Part shown: positions 21,789-38,962 of the stretch, piece after piece
Position numbering within the stretch: the first letter of the stretch is position 1
How the letters are laid out: every line of letters begins with the position of its first letter
Assembly: GCA_004292755.1 (NCBI GenBank)
Contig: RDXE01000040.1
Coordinates: 1 to 64,000, forward strand
Source: Alphaproteobacteria bacterium
Lineage (GTDB): Bacteria; Pseudomonadota; Alphaproteobacteria; Elsterales; Elsteraceae
Direction of reading: 5' to 3'
DNA length: 64,000 nucleotides
The notes under the pieces: generated by a model
Database searches by the model: none
What the model was told of the DNA's origin: nothing
The model's input: only the letters and a program-made list of their open reading frames with translations
Position numbers and translations under genes: made by a program

Positions 21789-21921
21789 GGCACCAACAGC
21801 GTCCTTCGCAGTGCAGCATGATGAGAAGGAGACGAACTGTCTCAGATGCCACAGTTTCGATTGCCTGATTGCCGCACTGCGTCAAGACTGATTGGACCTT
21901 GGTCGAGAACGGGACCCGCCG

Positions 21922-22407
21922 ATGGCTGCCACATCCGATGACGACGTGACCTTTATGCGACGCGCCATCGCGCTCTCGCGCACGCACATGGCCGCGGGCG
22001 ATGGCGGGCCATTCGGTGCTGTGATCGTGTTGGATGGCGCCATCGTTGGCGAGGGCTGGAACCAAGTCACCTCCACCAATGATCCAACCGCCCATGCTGA
22101 AGTGGTGGCGATCCGTGAGGCCTGTCGGCGGCTCGGTCGGTTCTCCCTCGAGGGGGCGACGCTCTACACCTCGTGCGAGCCCTGCCCGATGTGCCTGTCG
22201 GCCACCTATTGGGCCAGGATCAGCCGGATTCATTATGGCAACACGGCTGCTGATGCCGCAGCCATTGGCTTTGACGACGCGTTCCTTTATCGCGAGGTGG
22301 CGTTGCCGCTGACGGCGCGCAGTGTGCCGACCACGCAGTTGCTCGGCAGCGAGGCCAAGGCTGTGTTTCACGAGTGGGACGCCAAGCCCGACAAAGTCCC
22401 CTACTGA
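21922..22407 (+). CDS. Nucleoside/nucleobase deaminase, guanine deaminase-like
   Basis: A 161-residue zinc deaminase of the cytidine deaminase fold. The catalytic HAE triad is in PTAHAEVVAIREACRRLG and the two zinc cysteines are in TSCEPCPMCLSATYWARI. The MAAGDGGPFGAVIV opening and the C-terminal AKAVFHEWDAKPDKVPY match the bacterial guanine deaminase (GuaD of Bacillus type) rather than TadA. It would convert guanine to xanthine and ammonia. ATG at 21922 is chosen over the TTG at 21892. It ends 1 bp before ureD, which suggests a purine-degradation/urea link (inference). Confidence 0.85.
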   Translation: MAATSDDDVTFMRRAIALSRTHMAAGDGGPFGAVIVLDGAIVGEGWNQVTSTNDPTAHAEVVAIREACRRLGRFSLEGATLYTSCEPCPMCLSATYWARISRIHYGNTAADAAAIGFDDAFLYREVALPLTARSVPTTQLLGSEAKAVFHEWDAKPDKVPY

Positions 22408-22408
22408 G

Positions 22409-23209
22409 ATGCGCGGCGGCGTTGAGATTGCCGTTGCCAAGCGCGGTAGCGACACGCGATTGGTCGATCAATGGCAGCGCGCGCCCTTGCGTGTGCTGTG
22501 GCCTGCAGTACCAGCGGGGGAATGTGCCCAGGCGGTGCTGGTCACCACCTCAGGCGGTCTGGTCGCAGGCGACCACCTGACCCTCACCAGCCGGGTGGCA
22601 GAAGGCGCCGCTTTGCGCCTCGGCCCCCAGGCAGCTGAGAAAGTGTACCGCTCCACCGGTGCCACCACGCTGGTCACTGCGGAGCATCACGTCGCCGATG
22701 GCGCCTGGCTGGAAGTGCTGCCGCTGGAGACCATCCTGTTCGATGGCGCCCGGTTTGATCGGCGCACGCGCTTCACCCTGACCGGTGCGGCTCAACTGCT
22801 GGCAGGCGAAATCCTGGTCTTCGGTCGCCTCGCCCGTGGCGAGACGATGCGGCAGGGCTTTGTCCATGATGGTATGACCGTGGACGTGGACGGCCGCCTG
22901 ATCTGGGCTGATGCCTTCCGCGCCGACCCGCCCGATGCCTTGCTGGATGCTCCGACTGGCCTGAGGGGTGGTCGGGCCCTGGCGACGCTGGTGCACCGCG
23001 CGCCCGATCCCGATGCGGCGCTGAGCACGTTGCGCGCCCTGCCTGCCCCGGACACGCTGTTTGGCGCAACCAAGATTGGCCCTTTGGTGATCGCCCGCTG
23101 GCTGGGTGGGGAGGCCGGTCCCGTCCGCGCTGGGTTTGGCGCCGCGTTTTGTGCCTTGCGCGCAGCGGCCGGGTGGCCGGACCGTCTGCCCGTCAATTGG
23201 AGTGCTTGA
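22409..23209 (+). CDS. ureD: Urease accessory protein UreD
   Basis: A 266-residue urease chaperone (UreD/UreH) that binds apo-urease and helps nickel and carbamate assembly with UreF and UreG. Recognisable segments are VTTSGGLVAGDHLTLTSRV, GPQAAEKVYRS, LPLETILFDGARFDRRTRF and GEILVFGRLARGE. ATG at 22409 lies 1 bp after the deaminase stop. It opens the urease cluster ureD-ureA-ureB-ureC, as in many alphaproteobacteria. A 115-bp gap follows before ureA. Confidence 0.93.
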   Translation: MRGGVEIAVAKRGSDTRLVDQWQRAPLRVLWPAVPAGECAQAVLVTTSGGLVAGDHLTLTSRVAEGAALRLGPQAAEKVYRSTGATTLVTAEHHVADGAWLEVLPLETILFDGARFDRRTRFTLTGAAQLLAGEILVFGRLARGETMRQGFVHDGMTVDVDGRLIWADAFRADPPDALLDAPTGLRGGRALATLVHRAPDPDAALSTLRALPAPDTLFGATKIGPLVIARWLGGEAGPVRAGFGAAFCALRAAAGWPDRLPVNWSA

Positions 23210-23324
23210 GGATGGCCGCTTCGTCGCACCCCTCGGCATCGCCAAGGCTTGAGCGCGAGGCCATTTCGCTTCTAGGGTTTTGGGAGGCCATTGGGATGTC
23301 AGCATCGAGGGAGCGGGTACCGCC

Positions 23325-23627
23325 ATGCGATTGACGCCGCGTGAAAAGGACAAGCTGCTGGTTGCCACCGCAGCCATGGTGGCGCGCCGCCGGTTGGAGC
23401 GCGGCGTGAAGCTGAACCATCCCGAGGCGGTGGCCTTGATCACGGATTATGTCGTCGAAGGCGCGCGCGATGGGCGGTCGGTCGCCGATCTGATGGCGGC
23501 GGGTGCCAAGGTGCTGACTCGGGATCAAGTTATGTCCGGCGTGCCGGAAATGATCCACGAAATCCAAGTCGAAGCGACGTTCCCGGACGGGACCAAGCTG
23601 GTCACTGTCCACGAACCGATCCGCTAG
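23325..23627 (+). CDS. ureA: Urease gamma subunit UreA
   Basis: A 100-residue structural subunit with the classic opening [20 protein letters not shown], the [21 protein letters not shown] segment and the C-terminal [18 protein letters not shown]. Three copies each of gamma, beta and alpha assemble the cytosolic nickel enzyme that splits urea to ammonia and carbon dioxide. ATG at 23325 has GAGGGAG upstream. Length is normal for separate UreA. Confidence 0.97.
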
Positions 23628-23647
23628 TCACGGAAGGCGGCCATCCA

Positions 23648-23956
23648 ATGATACCCGGTGAAACCCTGCCCGCCCCTGGCGAGATTGAGTTGCTGGAAGC
23701 GCGCGAAACCTTTGAGATCACAGTGGCCAACACGGGTGATCGGCCCATTCAAGTGGGCTCGCATTATCATTTCTTCGAAGCTAACCCGGCATTGAGCTTT
23801 GATCGCGACAAGGCGATGGGCTGCCGATTGGCCTTGCCGGCGGGCACCGCCACTCGCTTTGAACCCGGCCAAACCCGCACCGTCACGCTGGTGCGCTTTG
23901 CTGGATTGCGCCGCATCGTCGGCTTCCGCGCCCAAGTGATGGGAGCTGCCCCATGA
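23648..23956 (+). CDS. ureB: Urease beta subunit UreB
   Basis: A 102-residue structural subunit: [16 protein letters not shown], then [19 protein letters not shown] and [16 protein letters not shown], all standard UreB segments. It lies 20 bp after ureA and its stop overlaps the ureC start (ATGA), so beta and alpha are translationally coupled. Confidence 0.97.
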
Positions 23957-25650
23957 AGATCAGCCGCGCCAGCTATGCCCAGCTTTACGGACCCACCGTC
24001 GGCGACCGCATCCGCCTTGCTGACACCGACTTGCTGATCGAAGTGGAGCATGACCACACGATCTATGGCGAGGAGGTTACCTTCGGCGGCGGCAAAGTGA
24101 TTCGCGATGGCATGGGCCAGTCCCAGCGCAGCCGTGCCGATGGCGCCGTCGACACTGTGATCACAAACGCAGTTATTCTGGACGCCCGGCTGGGGGTCGT
24201 GAAGGCCGACATCGGCATCAAGGACGGACGCATCTGCGGCATTGGCAAAGCAGGCAATCCCGATACCCAGCCAGGTGTATCCATCGTCATCGGGCCGGGA
24301 ACCGACATCATCGCGGGCGAGCGCAAGATCATCACCGCGGGCGGTATTGACAGCCACATCCACTTGATCTGCCCGCAGCAGGTGGAGGATGCCATCGCCT
24401 CGGGCATCACCACGTTGCTGGGCGGTGGCACTGGTCCATCATCGGGAACAGCTGCCACCACCTGCACGCCCGGGCCGTGGCACATCGCCCGCATGTTGAA
24501 GGCAGCCGAGGGGTTGCCGGTCAATATCGGCCTGTTCGGCAAAGGCAATGCCTCGGACCCCGCCGCTTTGGAGGAGATGATCCGCGCCGGTGCCTGCGCC
24601 CTGAAACTGCATGAGGATTGGGGCACCACGCCCGCTGCCATCGACTGCTGCCTCACTGTGGCAGACCGGATGGACATCCAGGTTGCCATCCACACTGACA
24701 CTCTGAACGAGAGCGGATTCGTGGAGGAGACGATCAAGGCCTTCAAGGGCCGCACCATCCACGCCTTCCACACCGAAGGGGCAGGCGGCGGACACGCGCC
24801 GGACATCATCTCCGTGGCCGGGTTGCCGAATGTGCTGCCGTCCTCCACCAATCCAACCCGGCCCTATACGGTGAACACGCTGGATGAGCATCTGGACATG
24901 CTCATGGTCTGTCACCACCTGAGCCCGCGCATTCCCGAAGACGTGGCCTTCGCCGAAAGCCGCATTCGGCGCGAAACCATCGCCGCCGAGGATATTCTGC
25001 ACGACCTCGGCGCGATCAGCATGATGTCGTCGGACAGTCAGGCGATGGGCCGGATTGGCGAGACCATCCTGCGCACGTGGCAAACCGCGCACAAGATGAA
25101 GCGCCAGCGCGGCAGCCTGCCGCGTGATGGCGGAGCCGACAACCAGCGCGCGCGCCGGTACATCGCGAAGTACACCTGCAACCCAGCCATCGCCCATGGC
25201 ATCGGCCATGTCGTCGGCTCGGTGCAGGTGGGCCTGCTGGCGGACCTAGTGGTGTGGACGCCTGCGTTCTTTGGCGTGAAACCGGACATGGTGCTGAAGT
25301 CTGGGATGATCGCCCACGCCATGATGGGGGACCCCAACGCTTCCATCCCCACCCCAGAACCCGTTCACGCCCGCCCGATGTTCGCCAGCTTTGGTCGCGC
25401 GATGACCGCGAGCGCCGTCACCTTCGTCTCCGCCGCCGCTCTGGACGAAGGTGTCGGCCGCGACCTGCGTCGCCCTCTGGTCGCTGTGGAGAATTGTCGC
25501 AAGATCGGCAAAGCCGACATGGTGATGAACGCTGCCACGCCCCACATCGAAGTCGACCCCGAAACCTACGAAGTCCGCGCTGACGGCGAGCTGCTCACCT
25601 GCGAGCCAGCCGAGGAACTGCCGATGGCGCAGCGGTATTTCTTGTTTTAG
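23953..25650 (+). CDS. ureC: Urease alpha (catalytic) subunit UreC
   Basis: The 565-residue catalytic subunit. It opens [20 protein letters not shown], carries the nickel-binding [14 protein letters not shown], the carbamylated lysine in [15 protein letters not shown] (Lys218), histidines in [13 protein letters not shown], the mobile flap [20 protein letters not shown] (from about residue 319) and [17 protein letters not shown]. All active-site ligands are intact. The usual ureE, ureF and ureG maturation genes do not follow; an Mrr-like nuclease comes next, so maturation factors must be encoded elsewhere. Confidence 0.97.
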
Positions 25651-25667: not shown

Positions 25668-26588
25668 GTGGCCATCCCTGACTTCCAGACCCTGATGCTG
25701 CCGGTGCTGCAAGCATGTGCAGCGGGAGAGATCCGAGCGGCTGACTTGGTTGAGGCCTTAGCCAAGCGATTCGATCTAACAGTTGATGAACAAGCCGCAC
25801 TCTTACCGTCAGGGCGCCAGACGACCTTTGCGAACCGTACCCATTGGGCCATCTCCTATCTCGGCAAGGCCGGGTTGGTGGAGCGCACACGACGGGCACA
25901 TTATCGGGTGACTGCCCGCGGGCAACAGGTTCTTGCAACTTCACCGCCGCGGATTGACATCAAATTCCTAGGGCAATTCCCTGAATTCCAGAGCTTTCGA
26001 GAGACTCCGGACCGTGACCACGCGGCGCCCCTGACAAGCGCCGCACCTGAAGCAAGCCCAGTGTTGACCCCCGACGAAGTCATGCGCCGCGCGCACCAGC
26101 AGCTTGAAGATGCACTCGCTGAGGAGTTATTGCAGCGTATCTGGACCAGCACGCCGAAGTTCTTTGAAAGCCTTGTCGTGCGTTTGCTTGTTGCCATGGG
26201 CTACGGCGGCTCTGTTACAGATGTCAGCAAAGCCTTGGTTGGCGGTCCTGGAGATGGCGGAATCGACCGCGTGATTGATCAGGACGCACTCGGCCTCGAC
26301 CGGATATTTGTTCAAGCAAAGCGATATGCTCGGGAAAATGTGATTGGTCCCGGTGCCATTCGCGATTTCTTTGGTGCGCTCGACATAAAGAAAGCCTCGA
26401 AGGGCGTCTTCGTGACCTCCTCCGCCTTCTCAACCGACGCGATACAAACCACCAACCTGCTGGGCAAGCGCATCGTGCTGATCGATGGCCCCCAACTGGC
26501 GCGCATTCTGATCCGATTCAATGTCGGGTGTCGGGTTGAAGAAACTCTGACAATCAAGAGAATCGACGAAGAATTCTTTGAGGGATAG
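25668..26588 (+). CDS. mrr: Mrr-family restriction endonuclease
   Basis: A 306-residue nuclease predicted to cut modified (methylated) DNA. Residues ~1-90 are the Mrr N-terminal winged helix (ADLVEALAKRFDLTVDEQAA, FANRTHWAISYLGKAGLVER). The C-terminal PD-(D/E)XK catalytic domain has FFESLVVRLLVAMGYGG, then GGPGDGGIDRVIDQDALGLD with the catalytic aspartate, and FVQAKRY (QxK). GTG at 25668 is the only in-frame start near the beginning; the ATG at 25655 is out of frame. Base composition is less GC-rich than ureC, and the following DNA is AT-rich, consistent with acquisition. As a type IV-like enzyme it needs no methylase partner, and none is seen. Confidence 0.92.
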   Translation: MAIPDFQTLMLPVLQACAAGEIRAADLVEALAKRFDLTVDEQAALLPSGRQTTFANRTHWAISYLGKAGLVERTRRAHYRVTARGQQVLATSPPRIDIKFLGQFPEFQSFRETPDRDHAAPLTSAAPEASPVLTPDEVMRRAHQQLEDALAEELLQRIWTSTPKFFESLVVRLLVAMGYGGSVTDVSKALVGGPGDGGIDRVIDQDALGLDRIFVQAKRYARENVIGPGAIRDFFGALDIKKASKGVFVTSSAFSTDAIQTTNLLGKRIVLIDGPQLARILIRFNVGCRVEETLTIKRIDEEFFEG

Positions 26589-26986
26589 GCATAACCAAAA
26601 TCCCGATCAAGCGCGCTCCAATCCTCCAAGTGATAAGTATTAGTGATACCAAACCATCAAGCGACAATAGCAGTGACTTGATTATGGAATTGAGGTGGAC
26701 CCCATTTATTGGACATGTCAGTCAATATAGCCTACACTAAGAAGTGATGGTGCTGGCTCTGCCCGCATGGGCCAGAAATCTTGAAATGCCGCCTACGATA
26801 GCGAGAAATCGGCGCCTGATCGGTCTGCAAACCAATCGGACTGAATTCAATCGGTCCCGGATCACCCGAACCCAGCGCAAAACGTGGTTATCGGAGGTGT
26901 CCGCCTGGTTTAAGCGCTTCGACCACCTGAAACAGCGTGCTTGTGCTTGACCGGGCGGGATGGAATTCCCCCGCGACCACCCGCTG
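26589..26986. other. AT-richer intergenic region, possible insertion-sequence remnant
   Basis: No firm gene. Near 26691-26720 the string GAGGTGGACCCCATTTATTG followed by GACA looks like the terminal inverted repeat of an IS3-family element, but no transposase and no matching opposite end are visible. A 68-codon frame (26744-26950, starting MMVLALPAWARN) and a 91-codon reverse frame (26737-27012) resemble nothing known to me and may be chance. The region separates the Mrr gene from the end of mutL. Confidence 0.35.
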
Positions 26987-28828
26987 CTACCGCCGCCCGA
27001 ACAACCGTTCAATGTCGGCGCGTTTCAGCTCCACCCATGTGGGGCGACCGTGGTTGCATTGGCCGCTGTGGGGGGTGGCTTCCATGTCGCGCAGCAGGGC
27101 GTTCATCTCGGCTGCGCTGAGGGTGCGACCAGCGCGCACGCTGCCATGGCAGGCCATGGTGGAGCAGATGGCGTCCAGCCGCTCTCCCAGTGCCAGGGTT
27201 TGGCCAAGTTCGGCCAAATCATCGGCAAGGTCTTCCACCAACCGCCGTGTGTTGGGATGGCCGAGGGCGGCTGGGACGGCACGCACCAGCACGGCACCGG
27301 GCCCAAAGCCTTCGAGATCCAGGCCAAGGCGACCAATCTCGGCTGCCGCAGCGACGAGGCGGGCGGCGGCAGCCTCTCCCACCTCCACCACGTCGGGCAG
27401 CAGCAACAGCTGGCGCGGTGGGTCACGGGTGGCGAGGGCGGCCTTCAAGCGCTCGTAGACCAAGCGCTCATGGGCGGCGTGTTGGTCAACCAGCACGATG
27501 CCATCCGCGGTCTCCGCCACGATGTAGGTGCCGTGCAGTTGCGCCCGCGCAGCCCCCAGCGGGTAGGCGTCGGGCGGCGGCCCGCCAGCAGTGGCGTCCT
27601 CCACGCGGGCGGCGGGCGGCAGGTCGGCACGGGGGATGGTTGGGGCTGGTGCTGGGGTGTAGCCAGCCGCTTCCTCCCGCATCCCCTGCCCCCATGGCGC
27701 GCTGGCTGGCGCTTGCGCCGCTGCGTGGAGGTGAATGGCACCAGGCGTGAGGCCCGCCAGAGATGGCTGCCAACCACTGGCCCCGATGCCTGCAGCGGGC
27801 CGTAGGGCGGCCAGGGTGTCGGTCGCCACGGTGTTCGAGGCGCGATGGCCCGCCGCTGCCAGCGCGTGCTTGATCGCGCTGACAATCATGCCGCGCACCA
27901 GGGCTGGGTCGCGAAAGCGCACCTCGGTCTTGGCAGGGTGGACGTTGACATCCACCTCCTGCCCCGGAACCTCTAGGAACAGGGCGACCATCGGGTGGCG
28001 ATCGCGCGCCAACAGGTCCTGATACGCGCCGCGGACCGCGCCAACCAGCAGCTTGTCCCGGACCGGGCGCCGGTTGACGAACAGATACTGACCAGCGGCT
28101 GTGCCCTTGTTCAGCGTTGGCAAACCGGCATGCCCGGCCAGACGTACCCCGTCACGCTCCGCCCGGATTGGCACAGCATTCGCGCCAAACTCTGCCCCCA
28201 GCACGGCCGACAAGCGCTCCAGCGGGGAGGAGGCTGGCCAGCGGCGCGGCGTGCGAGAGCCGTCGCCGACGCTGAAGGCGATCTCCGGCCAAGCCATCGC
28301 CAACCGCTCCACCACATCCACCACGGCGTCCCACTCGGCGCGCAGGGATTTCAGGAACTTCAGCCGCGCCGGTGTGGCGAAGAACAAATCCCGCACCTCC
28401 ACCCGCGTGCCGGGATTGCCCGCCGCTGGGCCGACTGGCGCGACCTCGCCCCCCTCGACAGCGATCAGGGCCGCATGGTCGGCCCCGCGCGGGCGGGACA
28501 CGATGGTAAGTCGCGCCACGGCCCCGATGGACGGCAAGGCCTCACCGCGAAAGCCAAGGCTTTGGATCGCCAACAGGTCGTCATCGGGCAATTTGGAGGT
28601 GGCGTGCCGCTCGACCGCGAGGGCTAGGTCCCCTGGGGCCATGCCGATCCCGTCATCGGTCACCTGGATCAGCGCTTTACCGCCCTCGCGCGCGATCACG
28701 TCGATGCGGCGCGCACCGGCGTCAATGGCGTTTTCCACCAGTTCCTTGACCGCAGCCGCCGGTCGCTCAATCACCTCGCCCGCAGCAATGCGGTTTACCA
28801 GCGTGCCGGGTAACCGGCGGATGCTCAT
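26987..28828 (-). CDS. mutL: DNA mismatch repair protein MutL
   Basis: A 613-residue mismatch-repair ATPase that links MutS recognition to strand incision. The GHKL domain has [28 protein letters not shown] and [13 protein letters not shown]. The C-terminal dimerisation domain has the metal-binding [12 protein letters not shown] motif together with ACHGSVRAG and [10 protein letters not shown], the signs of an intrinsic MutL endonuclease as in organisms without MutH. ATG at 28828 overlaps the stop of pgi by 4 bp, so pgi and mutL are co-transcribed. A long poorly conserved linker (about residues 330-420) joins the domains. Confidence 0.96.
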
Positions 28829-36881: not shown

Positions 36882-37082
36882 GCTTTACGCGTTTGTCGGC
36901 ACCGAGCGTCGCTACTAACACAGCCATGCATGGTTCCGATAGTCCGATGTCATCGTCGGGCTGAAGTAATTGGTTGCATTCTGCGGCGCGGGTCGGTTCC
37001 GGAGCAAACCGCGCTGCTAACTTGCTCCGGAACCGACCCGCGCCTTGGATGATGGTAAAGCGTGACTAAACCAGTGGCGACG
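36882..37082 (+). ncRNA. Predicted retron msr-msd noncoding RNA
   Basis: This is the RNA template and primer for msDNA synthesis by the retron reverse transcriptase. In the msr part two hairpins are visible: AGCCA-TGCA-TGGTT (36922-36935) and AGTCCGA/TCGGGCT with an 8-nt loop (36941-36962, one G-U pair). The msd part is a perfect 23-bp stem (36985-37007 with 37022-37044) around a 14-nt loop, unusually strong for this AT-rich island. Two candidates exist for the outer a1/a2 pairing: GCTTTAC (36882-36888) with GTAAAGC (37055-37061), or CGTCGCTACT (36907-36916) with AGTGGCGACG (37073-37082, one G-U pair, overlapping the effector start). Exact ends and the branching guanosine are not determined. 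Position directly before the effector gene matches Retron-Eco1. Confidence 0.8.
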
Positions 37083-38048
37083 ATAAGAACTTCACTTCAA
37101 AATTTCTTTTTGGGGGTAGACCTGTCCAACTCCTATGTTGTGACGGGTCTACCCCTTATTTTTTTGTGCGGAGGTTCTATTAATGATGGATCATCTGGAA
37201 CGCAATCCCTGCGAAAGGCATTGGTTAAAACTCAGATTTTTCAAGATACGAGTAAAGTAAAGATTTTTATCGCGGAGAAAGTTTTGAACTTTGAAACGAC
37301 AAAACATAAGGATTTAAAGAGGTTTGAGAAGCTTATTGGGAACTATTGTGACATCGTGGTGGTCATTTTGGAAAGTCCAGGCTCAATTTGCGAACTTGGA
37401 GTTTTCTCTGAAATTGTTGAGATTTCGGAGAAGCTGCTTGTAATTATTGAGGGCTGCCACTTTGAAAAGAGCTCTTTTATTCGACAGGGAGTGCTCCAGG
37501 CGTTGGGCGAAAACGTTAAACCTATTAGTTGGCAGACAGTCACGGGCGACAATATGCTGTTTACCTTAGAGCCGGATGACCTAGCAGACATTGCGGATCA
37601 AATCATATCAAAAGCTAGTCAACTCACTACATCGCGGAAAAAGCTGTCTCTCGATAAGACTAGGCATCAAGTAGCTTTTGTTTATTCCTGTTGCAGACTT
37701 TTGATAGGTCCAACCAAGTCTGAGATTGAGGAATGCTTAGAGATTTTCCAAAATATTGCCGGCCTACCGCCGGAACCTTCATTCTCAGTTCAAGAAATAC
37801 TGGAAATGATGCAAGTGTTTGAGATGATTACGGTTAACTACTATCGCGGTAAAAAACACCATTTTCTCTCCGATCCCACCGAAAGTGTGATTTCGTCCCG
37901 CGTCCCATGGCCGCATGTCCAGTTTAACTGGCACTCTGGAACAAAAAATTATGATCAGAGAAAACTAGATGTATTCAGTGATCTGAAGGATAGTAGCGAG
38001 GGGAAGTGGCGTATCAAAACTAGCCCTCACTTTGGGACTAAGCCATGA
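37062..38048 (+). CDS. Retron effector with nucleoside deoxyribosyltransferase-like domain (type II-A, Ec86/St85 family)
   Basis: A 328-residue protein. The N-terminal domain has the nucleoside-deoxyribosyltransferase-like pattern: LPLIFLCGGSINDGS (residues 31-45), then CDIVVVILESPGSICELGVF (96-115) with the presumed catalytic Glu111. The same two blocks, IFLCGG and ESPGSxxELGxFS, occur in the Retron-Eco1 (Ec86) effector at matching spacing. The C-terminal ~150 residues (from about 190) are helical and probably bind nucleic acid, as in that family. In Retron-Eco1 this protein forms filaments with the msDNA and RT and hydrolyses NAD+ (established for the relative). GTG at 37062 gives an N-terminus of the same length as the relative. 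It overlaps the RT gene by ATGA. Codon use and AT content differ sharply from neighbours, pointing to horizontal transfer. Confidence 0.88.
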   Translation: MTKPVATIRTSLQNFFLGVDLSNSYVVTGLPLIFLCGGSINDGSSGTQSLRKALVKTQIFQDTSKVKIFIAEKVLNFETTKHKDLKRFEKLIGNYCDIVVVILESPGSICELGVFSEIVEISEKLLVIIEGCHFEKSSFIRQGVLQALGENVKPISWQTVTGDNMLFTLEPDDLADIADQIISKASQLTTSRKKLSLDKTRHQVAFVYSCCRLLIGPTKSEIEECLEIFQNIAGLPPEPSFSVQEILEMMQVFEMITVNYYRGKKHHFLSDPTESVISSRVPWPHVQFNWHSGTKNYDQRKLDVFSDLKDSSEGKWRIKTSPHFGTKP

Positions 38049-38962
38049 CTGAAATCATAAAAGAGATCATGCGGCATACAGGCTTTTGGCCGTCGGACAT
38101 TGTCCGTATATCACGCGATGCACCCCGTAGCTATAAGGTTTTCTCTATTCCAAAACAAAACGGGAGTTCTCGGACGATTGCACAGCCAACGAAGGAACTG
38201 AAGGCAATCCAACGGGCGATCGTCGAATGTCTTAGGAAAATTCTACCAGCTGAACATACTACAGCGACTGCGTACGTCAAAGGAAAAAGCATCATCGACA
38301 ATGCAAAGCCACATAGAAACTCTCGTATTTTTTTGAAAACAGATTTCCAAAACTTTTTCCCATCGATCATGCCAAGTCATTTTGATCAGTTGCTTATCCA
38401 AAATGAGATACACTGGGAGCCAGAGATCTGTAACCTTATTAAACGCCTACTCTTTTTTGGGAACCGGACAAGCACTCCGCAATGTTTGGCAATTGGAGCT
38501 CCATCTTCTCCCTATATCTCCAATGCCATCATGTATCAGTTTGATCTCAGATTTTCACAATATTGTGCCAGCAACGAACTCATTTATACTCGGTATGCTG
38601 ATGATGTTACTGTTTCTGGAAATGGTAAAATGAACCAGTCAGCGGTCCTTAATGAGATTGATCGTAATTTAGCTAGTGTCGGACTTAGTGCATTGAAAAT
38701 CAACCCATCCAAAACACGAGTTTTCTCCCATAAACACGGGGTAAAGATCACCGGCATCAGAGTGACAAGTGATGGAGAAATCAAGGTAGATCGTGAATTA
38801 CGGAGAGAGATTCGTGCAAGACTGCATAAGATCAGAATACAATCTGCTAGCACGGAGATGATTGCAGAAACTCACGGCTTACTTTCATTTGTTCATATGA
38901 TAGACGAAGAATTGGAGGAGAATTTGCTTTCTCAATACAAGTTAGATAGCTATGACTGGTAG
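38045..38962 (+). CDS. Retron reverse transcriptase
   Basis: A 305-residue RNA-directed DNA polymerase that copies msd into msDNA primed from a branching guanosine of msr. Motifs in order: SIPKQNGSSRTIAQPTKEL (palm entry), the retron-specific NAxxH as NAKPH (86-90), FLKTDFQNFFPSI with catalytic Asp100, GAPSSPYISN (151-160), YTRYADDVTVSG with the YADD box (184-187), and the retron hallmark (V/I)TG in HGVKITGIRV (235-237). Size is that of retron RTs and it lacks the maturase and endonuclease domains of group II intron proteins. It is last in the order ncRNA-effector-RT. AT-rich like the effector. A 75-bp gap follows before the convergent TVP38 gene. Confidence 0.95.
   Translation: MTEIIKEIMRHTGFWPSDIVRISRDAPRSYKVFSIPKQNGSSRTIAQPTKELKAIQRAIVECLRKILPAEHTTATAYVKGKSIIDNAKPHRNSRIFLKTDFQNFFPSIMPSHFDQLLIQNEIHWEPEICNLIKRLLFFGNRTSTPQCLAIGAPSSPYISNAIMYQFDLRFSQYCASNELIYTRYADDVTVSGNGKMNQSAVLNEIDRNLASVGLSALKINPSKTRVFSHKHGVKITGIRVTSDGEIKVDRELRREIRARLHKIRIQSASTEMIAETHGLLSFVHMIDEELEENLLSQYKLDSYDW

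What the first reader, a model, noticed from the sequence alone, without database searches (positions are those of the whole stretch)
25668..26986. Mrr nuclease and a possible IS remnant sit right behind ureC, where ureEFG are expected
Seen: ureD-ureA-ureB-ureC is intact, then Mrr begins 17 bp after the ureC stop, followed by AT-richer DNA with a possible IS3-type end. No ureE, ureF or ureG lies in the window. Known: urease needs UreEFG for nickel insertion. Inference: an insertion may have separated or replaced the accessory genes, carrying a type IV restriction enzyme.
Basis: partly seen in the sequence, partly recalled or inferred. Interest (0 to 1): 0.5.

Follow-up and report, generated by a model that had tools for sequence, protein, structure and literature searches.

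The report
Split urease operon with neighbouring Mrr
The urease helper genes missing from this spot are intact elsewhere in the same genome, and a common mobile defence nuclease gene now sits where they usually are, so this looks like ordinary gene reshuffling rather than a broken or new system.

Summary
ureD-A-B-C are intact; an Mrr gene (Mrr_N + Mrr_cat) starts 17 bp after the ureC stop; the DNA behind it is AT-richer and carries a 25-bp end like that of an IS3-family element; no ureE, ureF or ureG lies in the window. The accessory genes are not lost or replaced: an intact ureE-ureF-ureG cluster lies on another contig (C26) beside hutC-hutH. In most relatives ureE follows ureC, so the split looks derived here. 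Mrr has the marks of a laterally moved defence gene: present in 3 of 9 family genomes, 81% identical to a copy beside an HsdR gene in another genus, low GC3, common on plasmids. Purifying selection and a kept catalytic motif suggest a working nuclease. Nothing found shows that Mrr or the IS caused the split: no transposase is left, ureEFG bears no matching scar, and the nearest urease relative's contig ends inside ureC. Split clusters also occur without Mrr, both among the loci here and in print (Nostoc PCC 7120). Best reading: a split urease operon activated in trans, plus an independently acquired type IV restriction gene. Low interest.

The parts
22391..23209 (+). ureD, urease accessory protein
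   Evidence: Pfam UreD 7.5e-48
23325..23627 (+). ureA, urease gamma subunit
   Evidence: Pfam Urease_gamma 6.6e-48 starting at residue 16 of the ORF 23280-23627
23648..23956 (+). ureB, urease beta subunit
   Evidence: Pfam Urease_beta 6.6e-42
23953..25650 (+). ureC, urease alpha subunit; the metal-ligand and active-site positions checked (H135, H137, K218, H247, H273, H321, D361) are the same in 85 of 85 rows
   Evidence: TIGR01792 over cut-off; column check; the roles of these residues are recalled
25668..26588 (+). mrr, type IV (modification-dependent) restriction endonuclease, winged-helix Mrr_N plus Mrr_cat
   Evidence: Pfam, PADLOC mREase_IV 4.3e-73, D200...Q216-A-K218 invariant in 6 of 6 aligned
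26589..26986 (.). AT-richer intergenic stretch between mrr and mutL (G+C 0.523)
26691..26715 (+). solo terminal inverted repeat of an IS3-like element; second genome copy at C81:9860-9884
   Evidence: pattern search; OrfB-like end next to the other copy
26987..28828 (-). mutL, convergent neighbour, not part of the system
   Evidence: Pfam

Best explanation
This is a urease operon broken in two by ordinary genome rearrangement, with an independently acquired type IV restriction gene in the gap. Shown: ureDABC stand here; ureEFG stand intact on contig C26 between a PSD-domain gene and hutC-hutH; mrr occupies the place behind ureC where relatives have ureE. Inferred: UreE, UreF and UreG are made in trans from C26 and load nickel into the UreABC apoenzyme together with UreD, so urease should work. 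Mrr, on the same strand 17 bp behind ureC, is probably transcribed by read-through from the ure operon and cuts incoming DNA that carries foreign methylation. The order of events (split first or Mrr first) is unknown.
For: ureG at C26:25014-25589; UreE, UreF and UreG Pfam domains in adjacent ORFs; HutC and HutH next door. ureE, F and G all downstream of ureC in 66 of 73 evaluable of 80 loci. G000's five UreC sister rows L048, L086, L094, L102, L112 and its five further UreDAB neighbours L049, L052, L063, L073, L116 are all contiguous. Mrr present in 3 of 9 family genomes; 81% identical to the G005 copy, against 61-64% for MutL in that genome; that copy follows an HsdR-domain gene. DNA similarity to the G005 copy ends at the ORF ends. 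GC3 0.61 against a mean of 0.73 (sd 0.08), third lowest of 47 window ORFs. dN/dS about 0.06-0.09. Two-locus urease precedent: Nostoc PCC 7120, ureDAB and ureC far from ureEFG (PMC6737895, passages read).
Against: Urease activity, co-transcription and Mrr activity are not measured. The nearest urease relative by UreD-A-B (G006, support 0.97) has its contig end inside ureC, and no ureG was found in it, so an older split shared with G006 is not excluded. dS between the two Mrr copies is above 1, so they parted long ago and the comparison with MutL is soft. The UreC and UreDAB trees disagree on the next nearest relatives.
Confidence: 0.8

Rival explanations
1. An IS- or Mrr-bearing insertion landed between ureC and ureE, and recombination between IS copies then carried ureEFG away, so that the insertion caused the split.
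For: mrr lies at the ureC-ureE junction position; a solo IS3-like end lies 102 bp behind mrr, with one other copy in the genome. The neighbours of mutL in same-genus G001 lie elsewhere here (C52 and C36:76.8k), so this is a rearrangement boundary in one lineage or the other.
Against: No copy of the IS end (up to 6 mismatches) in the 14 kb around ureEFG. No transposase left. The sspB and pyrophosphatase genes that are neighbours in G001 are also apart in G000, so loss of gene order is general. Splits or rearranged clusters without Mrr exist in other lineages (L047, L078, L082, L096, L104).
Confidence: 0.13
2. ureDABC and ureEFG were acquired or inherited separately and never formed one operon in this lineage.
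For: Urease genes of the family do not form one clade: G003-G005 group with Ancylobacter, G001 with Roseomonas (UreC tree), so urease genes move between lineages. UreG of G000 is an unresolved single branch.
Against: The rows nearest by UreC and, G006 apart, by UreD-A-B have one contiguous cluster. UreG of G000 falls in the same large half of the UreG tree as those rows that it holds.
Confidence: 0.06
3. The junction is an assembly artefact.
For: Draft genome in 95 contigs, one of which (C81) ends inside an IS copy.
Against: The junction lies about 25 kb inside a 125,720-bp contig; the only repeat is a 25-bp end with one other copy; the ureEFG site is also inside a long contig (169,059 bp).
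Confidence: 0.01

Closest known systems
Two-locus urease genes of Nostoc/Anabaena PCC 7120
   Same: ureDAB and ureC in one locus, ureEFG in another, as described in PMC6737895 (passages read)
   Different: Cyanobacterium; an unknown gene between ureDAB and ureC; no Mrr mentioned in the passages seen
Mrr of E. coli (EcoKMrr), type IV modification-dependent restriction
   Same: Winged-helix N-domain plus Mrr-cat nuclease with a PD-QxK site (described in PMC12707154, passages read); same two domains and D...QAK here
   Different: Stands alone behind ureC instead of in a defence island; specificity untested
hsdRMS-mrr operon of an Acetobacter vaccinii plasmid (NZ_CP043507.1)
   Same: Mrr of the same family, 45% identical
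   Different: There mrr follows hsdS by 4 bp in a type I system; no hsd genes are beside the window copy

Membership tests
Urease operon (ureDABC + ureEFG) | Structural subunits UreA, UreB and UreC intact | tested here: met
   active-site columns
Urease operon (ureDABC + ureEFG) | Accessory UreD, UreE, UreF and UreG present in the genome | tested here: met
   UreD in the window; UreE, UreF and UreG on C26
Urease operon (ureDABC + ureEFG) | All genes in one cluster | tested here: not met
   ureEFG on contig C26, ureDABC on C36
Urease operon (ureDABC + ureEFG) | Urease activity | not testable with these tools
   needs an assay
Mrr type IV restriction endonuclease | Mrr_N winged helix plus Mrr_cat domain above the curated cut-offs | tested here: met
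   PADLOC mREase_IV over nearly the whole length
Mrr type IV restriction endonuclease | D...QxK catalytic motif | tested here: met
   D200, Q216 and K218 invariant in 6 of 6 aligned
Mrr type IV restriction endonuclease | Cuts methylated DNA | not testable with these tools
   needs an assay
IS3-family element | Transposase OrfA/OrfB between two terminal repeats | tested here: not met
   one terminal repeat only in the window, no transposase-like frame in 26589-26986
IS3-family element | Terminal sequence shared with another copy in the genome | tested here: met
   C81:9860-9884, 0 mismatches to the pattern; IS3 label from a recalled OrfB motif

The most novel reading that the evidence does not exclude
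Mrr has become the last gene of the ure transcription unit, so that restriction of foreign methylated DNA is coupled to the nitrogen-controlled expression of urease.
Probability: 0.04. Interest if true: 0.4.

Novelty: new member of a known kind. Interest (0 to 1): 0.13.

Why it matters
It shows that a gene missing from a cluster need not be missing from the genome, and adds one clear case of a urease operon split between two loci with a defence gene at the broken end. The case would matter more only if Mrr proved to be expressed with urease.

Tried and rejected
Loss or replacement of the accessory genes: rejected, intact ureEFG on C26. Using same-genus G001 as the ancestral state: rejected after the UreC tree placed its urease with Roseomonas; G003-G005 likewise lie elsewhere in that tree. 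My first reading, that G000's accessory genes were Roseomonas-like, was wrong: that table mixes G000 and G001 queries and the high identities come from the G001 queries; with G000 queries alone corrected it. A chimeric ureC: no break in identity along its length. An empty site for ureDABC-mrr next to mutL: mutL neighbours differ among relatives, and the G001 neighbours lie on C52 and at C36:76.8k in G000, so no clean empty site. A solved structure for Mrr: no match at E 0.01. Papers with urease, operon, Mrr and restriction endonuclease: five listed, titles and abstract starts seen, none on such a junction by title. Papers with ureDABC and ureEFG: three listed, of which I read passages of one. 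Order-level searches returned the same nine genomes as family level. Part of the tree output, including the UreD tree, was cut and not seen.

Full report
What is there. The window carries ureD-ureA-ureB-ureC on the + strand (22391-25650), then an ORF of 306 aa (25668-26588) with Mrr_N and Mrr_cat domains, the PADLOC type IV enzyme model over its length and the invariant D200...Q216-A-K218 (6 of 6 aligned). The gap to the ureC stop is 17 bp. Behind it lie 398 bp of lower G+C (0.523) and then mutL on the other strand. Inside those 398 bp, 26691-26715 matches one other place in the genome, C81:9860. There, just inside the repeat, the reverse strand reads like the end of an IS3-type OrfB (motif recalled).

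Where the accessory genes are. A UreG search of the whole genome gave one match over the curated cut-off, C26:25014-25589 (E 7.7e-100), and a weak one below it on C41. Around the first, adjacent ORFs carry UreG, UreF and UreE domains, in the order ureE-ureF-ureG, between a gene with phosphatidylserine decarboxylase domains and hutC-hutH. UreC keeps the catalytic and metal-ligand positions checked (85 of 85 rows for each) and departs from 1 of 211 columns invariant in the other rows. UreG departs at 1 of 73 near-invariant columns, UreF at 1 of 15, UreD at 0 of 11, and UreE at 1 of 15, where the first His of WHxGNRH is Ala; the GNRH His and the His-rich tail are kept. Nothing here suggests a dead urease, but activity is not shown.

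Is the split old? Of 80 UreC relatives fetched from named genomes, 73 had at least 4 kb held downstream; 66 of these have ureE, ureF and ureG all downstream of ureC. The seven that do not are L047 and L096 (no ureEFG found within 8 kb), L078, L082 and L104 (rearranged), and L088 and L098 (ureE and ureF found, ureG not). No Mrr relative was found in any of 86 loci examined. In the UreC tree the sister of the window's UreC is a five-row clade of Acetobacteraceae and others, all contiguous. By UreD+A+B the nearest is G006 of the same family (support 0.97) and then five other rows, these five all contiguous. The two trees disagree, but both put contiguous clusters around G000, so the split is most simply derived. 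G006 itself cannot decide: its contig ends 42 codons into ureC, and no ureG was found in that 75% complete genome. Same-genus G001 and family members G003 and G005 are contiguous, but their urease genes are of other lineages, so they are no direct comparison.

Where Mrr comes from. It is present in 3 of 9 family genomes. The G005 copy is 81% identical, whereas MutL of G005 is 61-64% identical, and it lies 133 bp behind a gene with HSDR_N and helicase domains, with a PIN-domain gene on the other side. A relative on an Acetobacter vaccinii plasmid lies 4 bp behind hsdS in an hsdRMS operon; two other plasmid relatives looked at have no hsd genes within 4 kb. Of 72,556 plasmid records, 145 have a match, 48 of them covering at least 80% of the query; of 50,697 phage records, 3. 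DNA similarity between the window and G005 stops at the ORF ends. G+C and GC3 are low for the window. dN 0.12 and dS 1.36 (NG86), or 0.11 and 1.72 (YN00), give dN/dS of about 0.06-0.09: selection has kept the protein, and the two copies parted long ago. A review describes EcoKMrr as a winged helix fused to a Mrr-cat domain with a PD-QxK site, and the enteric immigration control region as a defence island with hsdRMS and mrr (PMC12707154, passages read).

Did the insertion cause the split? Not shown. mrr sits where ureE is in most relatives, and an IS end is near, which fits. But there is no matching IS end within 14 kb around ureEFG, no transposase, and no relative with an intermediate state. 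The surroundings of mutL are variable: in G001 mutL is followed by a caspase-domain gene, sspB and a pyrophosphatase gene, whose counterparts lie on C52 and at C36:76.8k in this genome. With gene order that loose, a split operon needs no special cause. The literature has the same two-locus arrangement in Nostoc PCC 7120 and fully scattered ure genes in Synechocystis PCC 6803 (PMC6737895, passages read).

Verdict. A real junction, ordinary parts: a split urease operon with its accessory genes intact elsewhere, and a laterally acquired Mrr behind ureC. Whether Mrr is read through from the ure promoter is the only open point of some interest.

Noticed in passing
window 37062-38962 (+): Two-gene retron of the St85 / type II-A kind: effector (NCBIfam STM3845_fam, over cut-off; PADLOC NDT_II-A) and reverse transcriptase (NCBIfam retron_St85_RT, over cut-off), GC3 0.44 and 0.41, far below the window's mean of 0.73. 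The ncRNA was not sought.
   Followed up: partly
L028 9922-10069 (G005:C72): Fragment holding only the last ~49 residues of an Mrr (75% identical), a likely gene remnant in the genome that also has the complete copy on C82.
   Followed up: no
window 21892-22407 (+): Deaminase-family gene overlapping the start of ureD; below the TadA cut-off, so perhaps another deaminase such as guanine deaminase (my guess). In G006 purine-degradation genes (HIUase/transthyretin, OHCU decarboxylase) lie upstream of ureD.
   Followed up: partly
L004 8263-8769 (G000:C26, ureE): UreE has Ala in place of the first His of WHxGNRH, which is His in the 81 other rows of 82; the GNRH His and His-rich tail are kept.
   Followed up: partly
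L023 (G001:C290): The same-genus genome has a Roseomonas-like urease cluster; with 4% contamination in that assembly this may be a stray contig or a lateral transfer.
   Followed up: no
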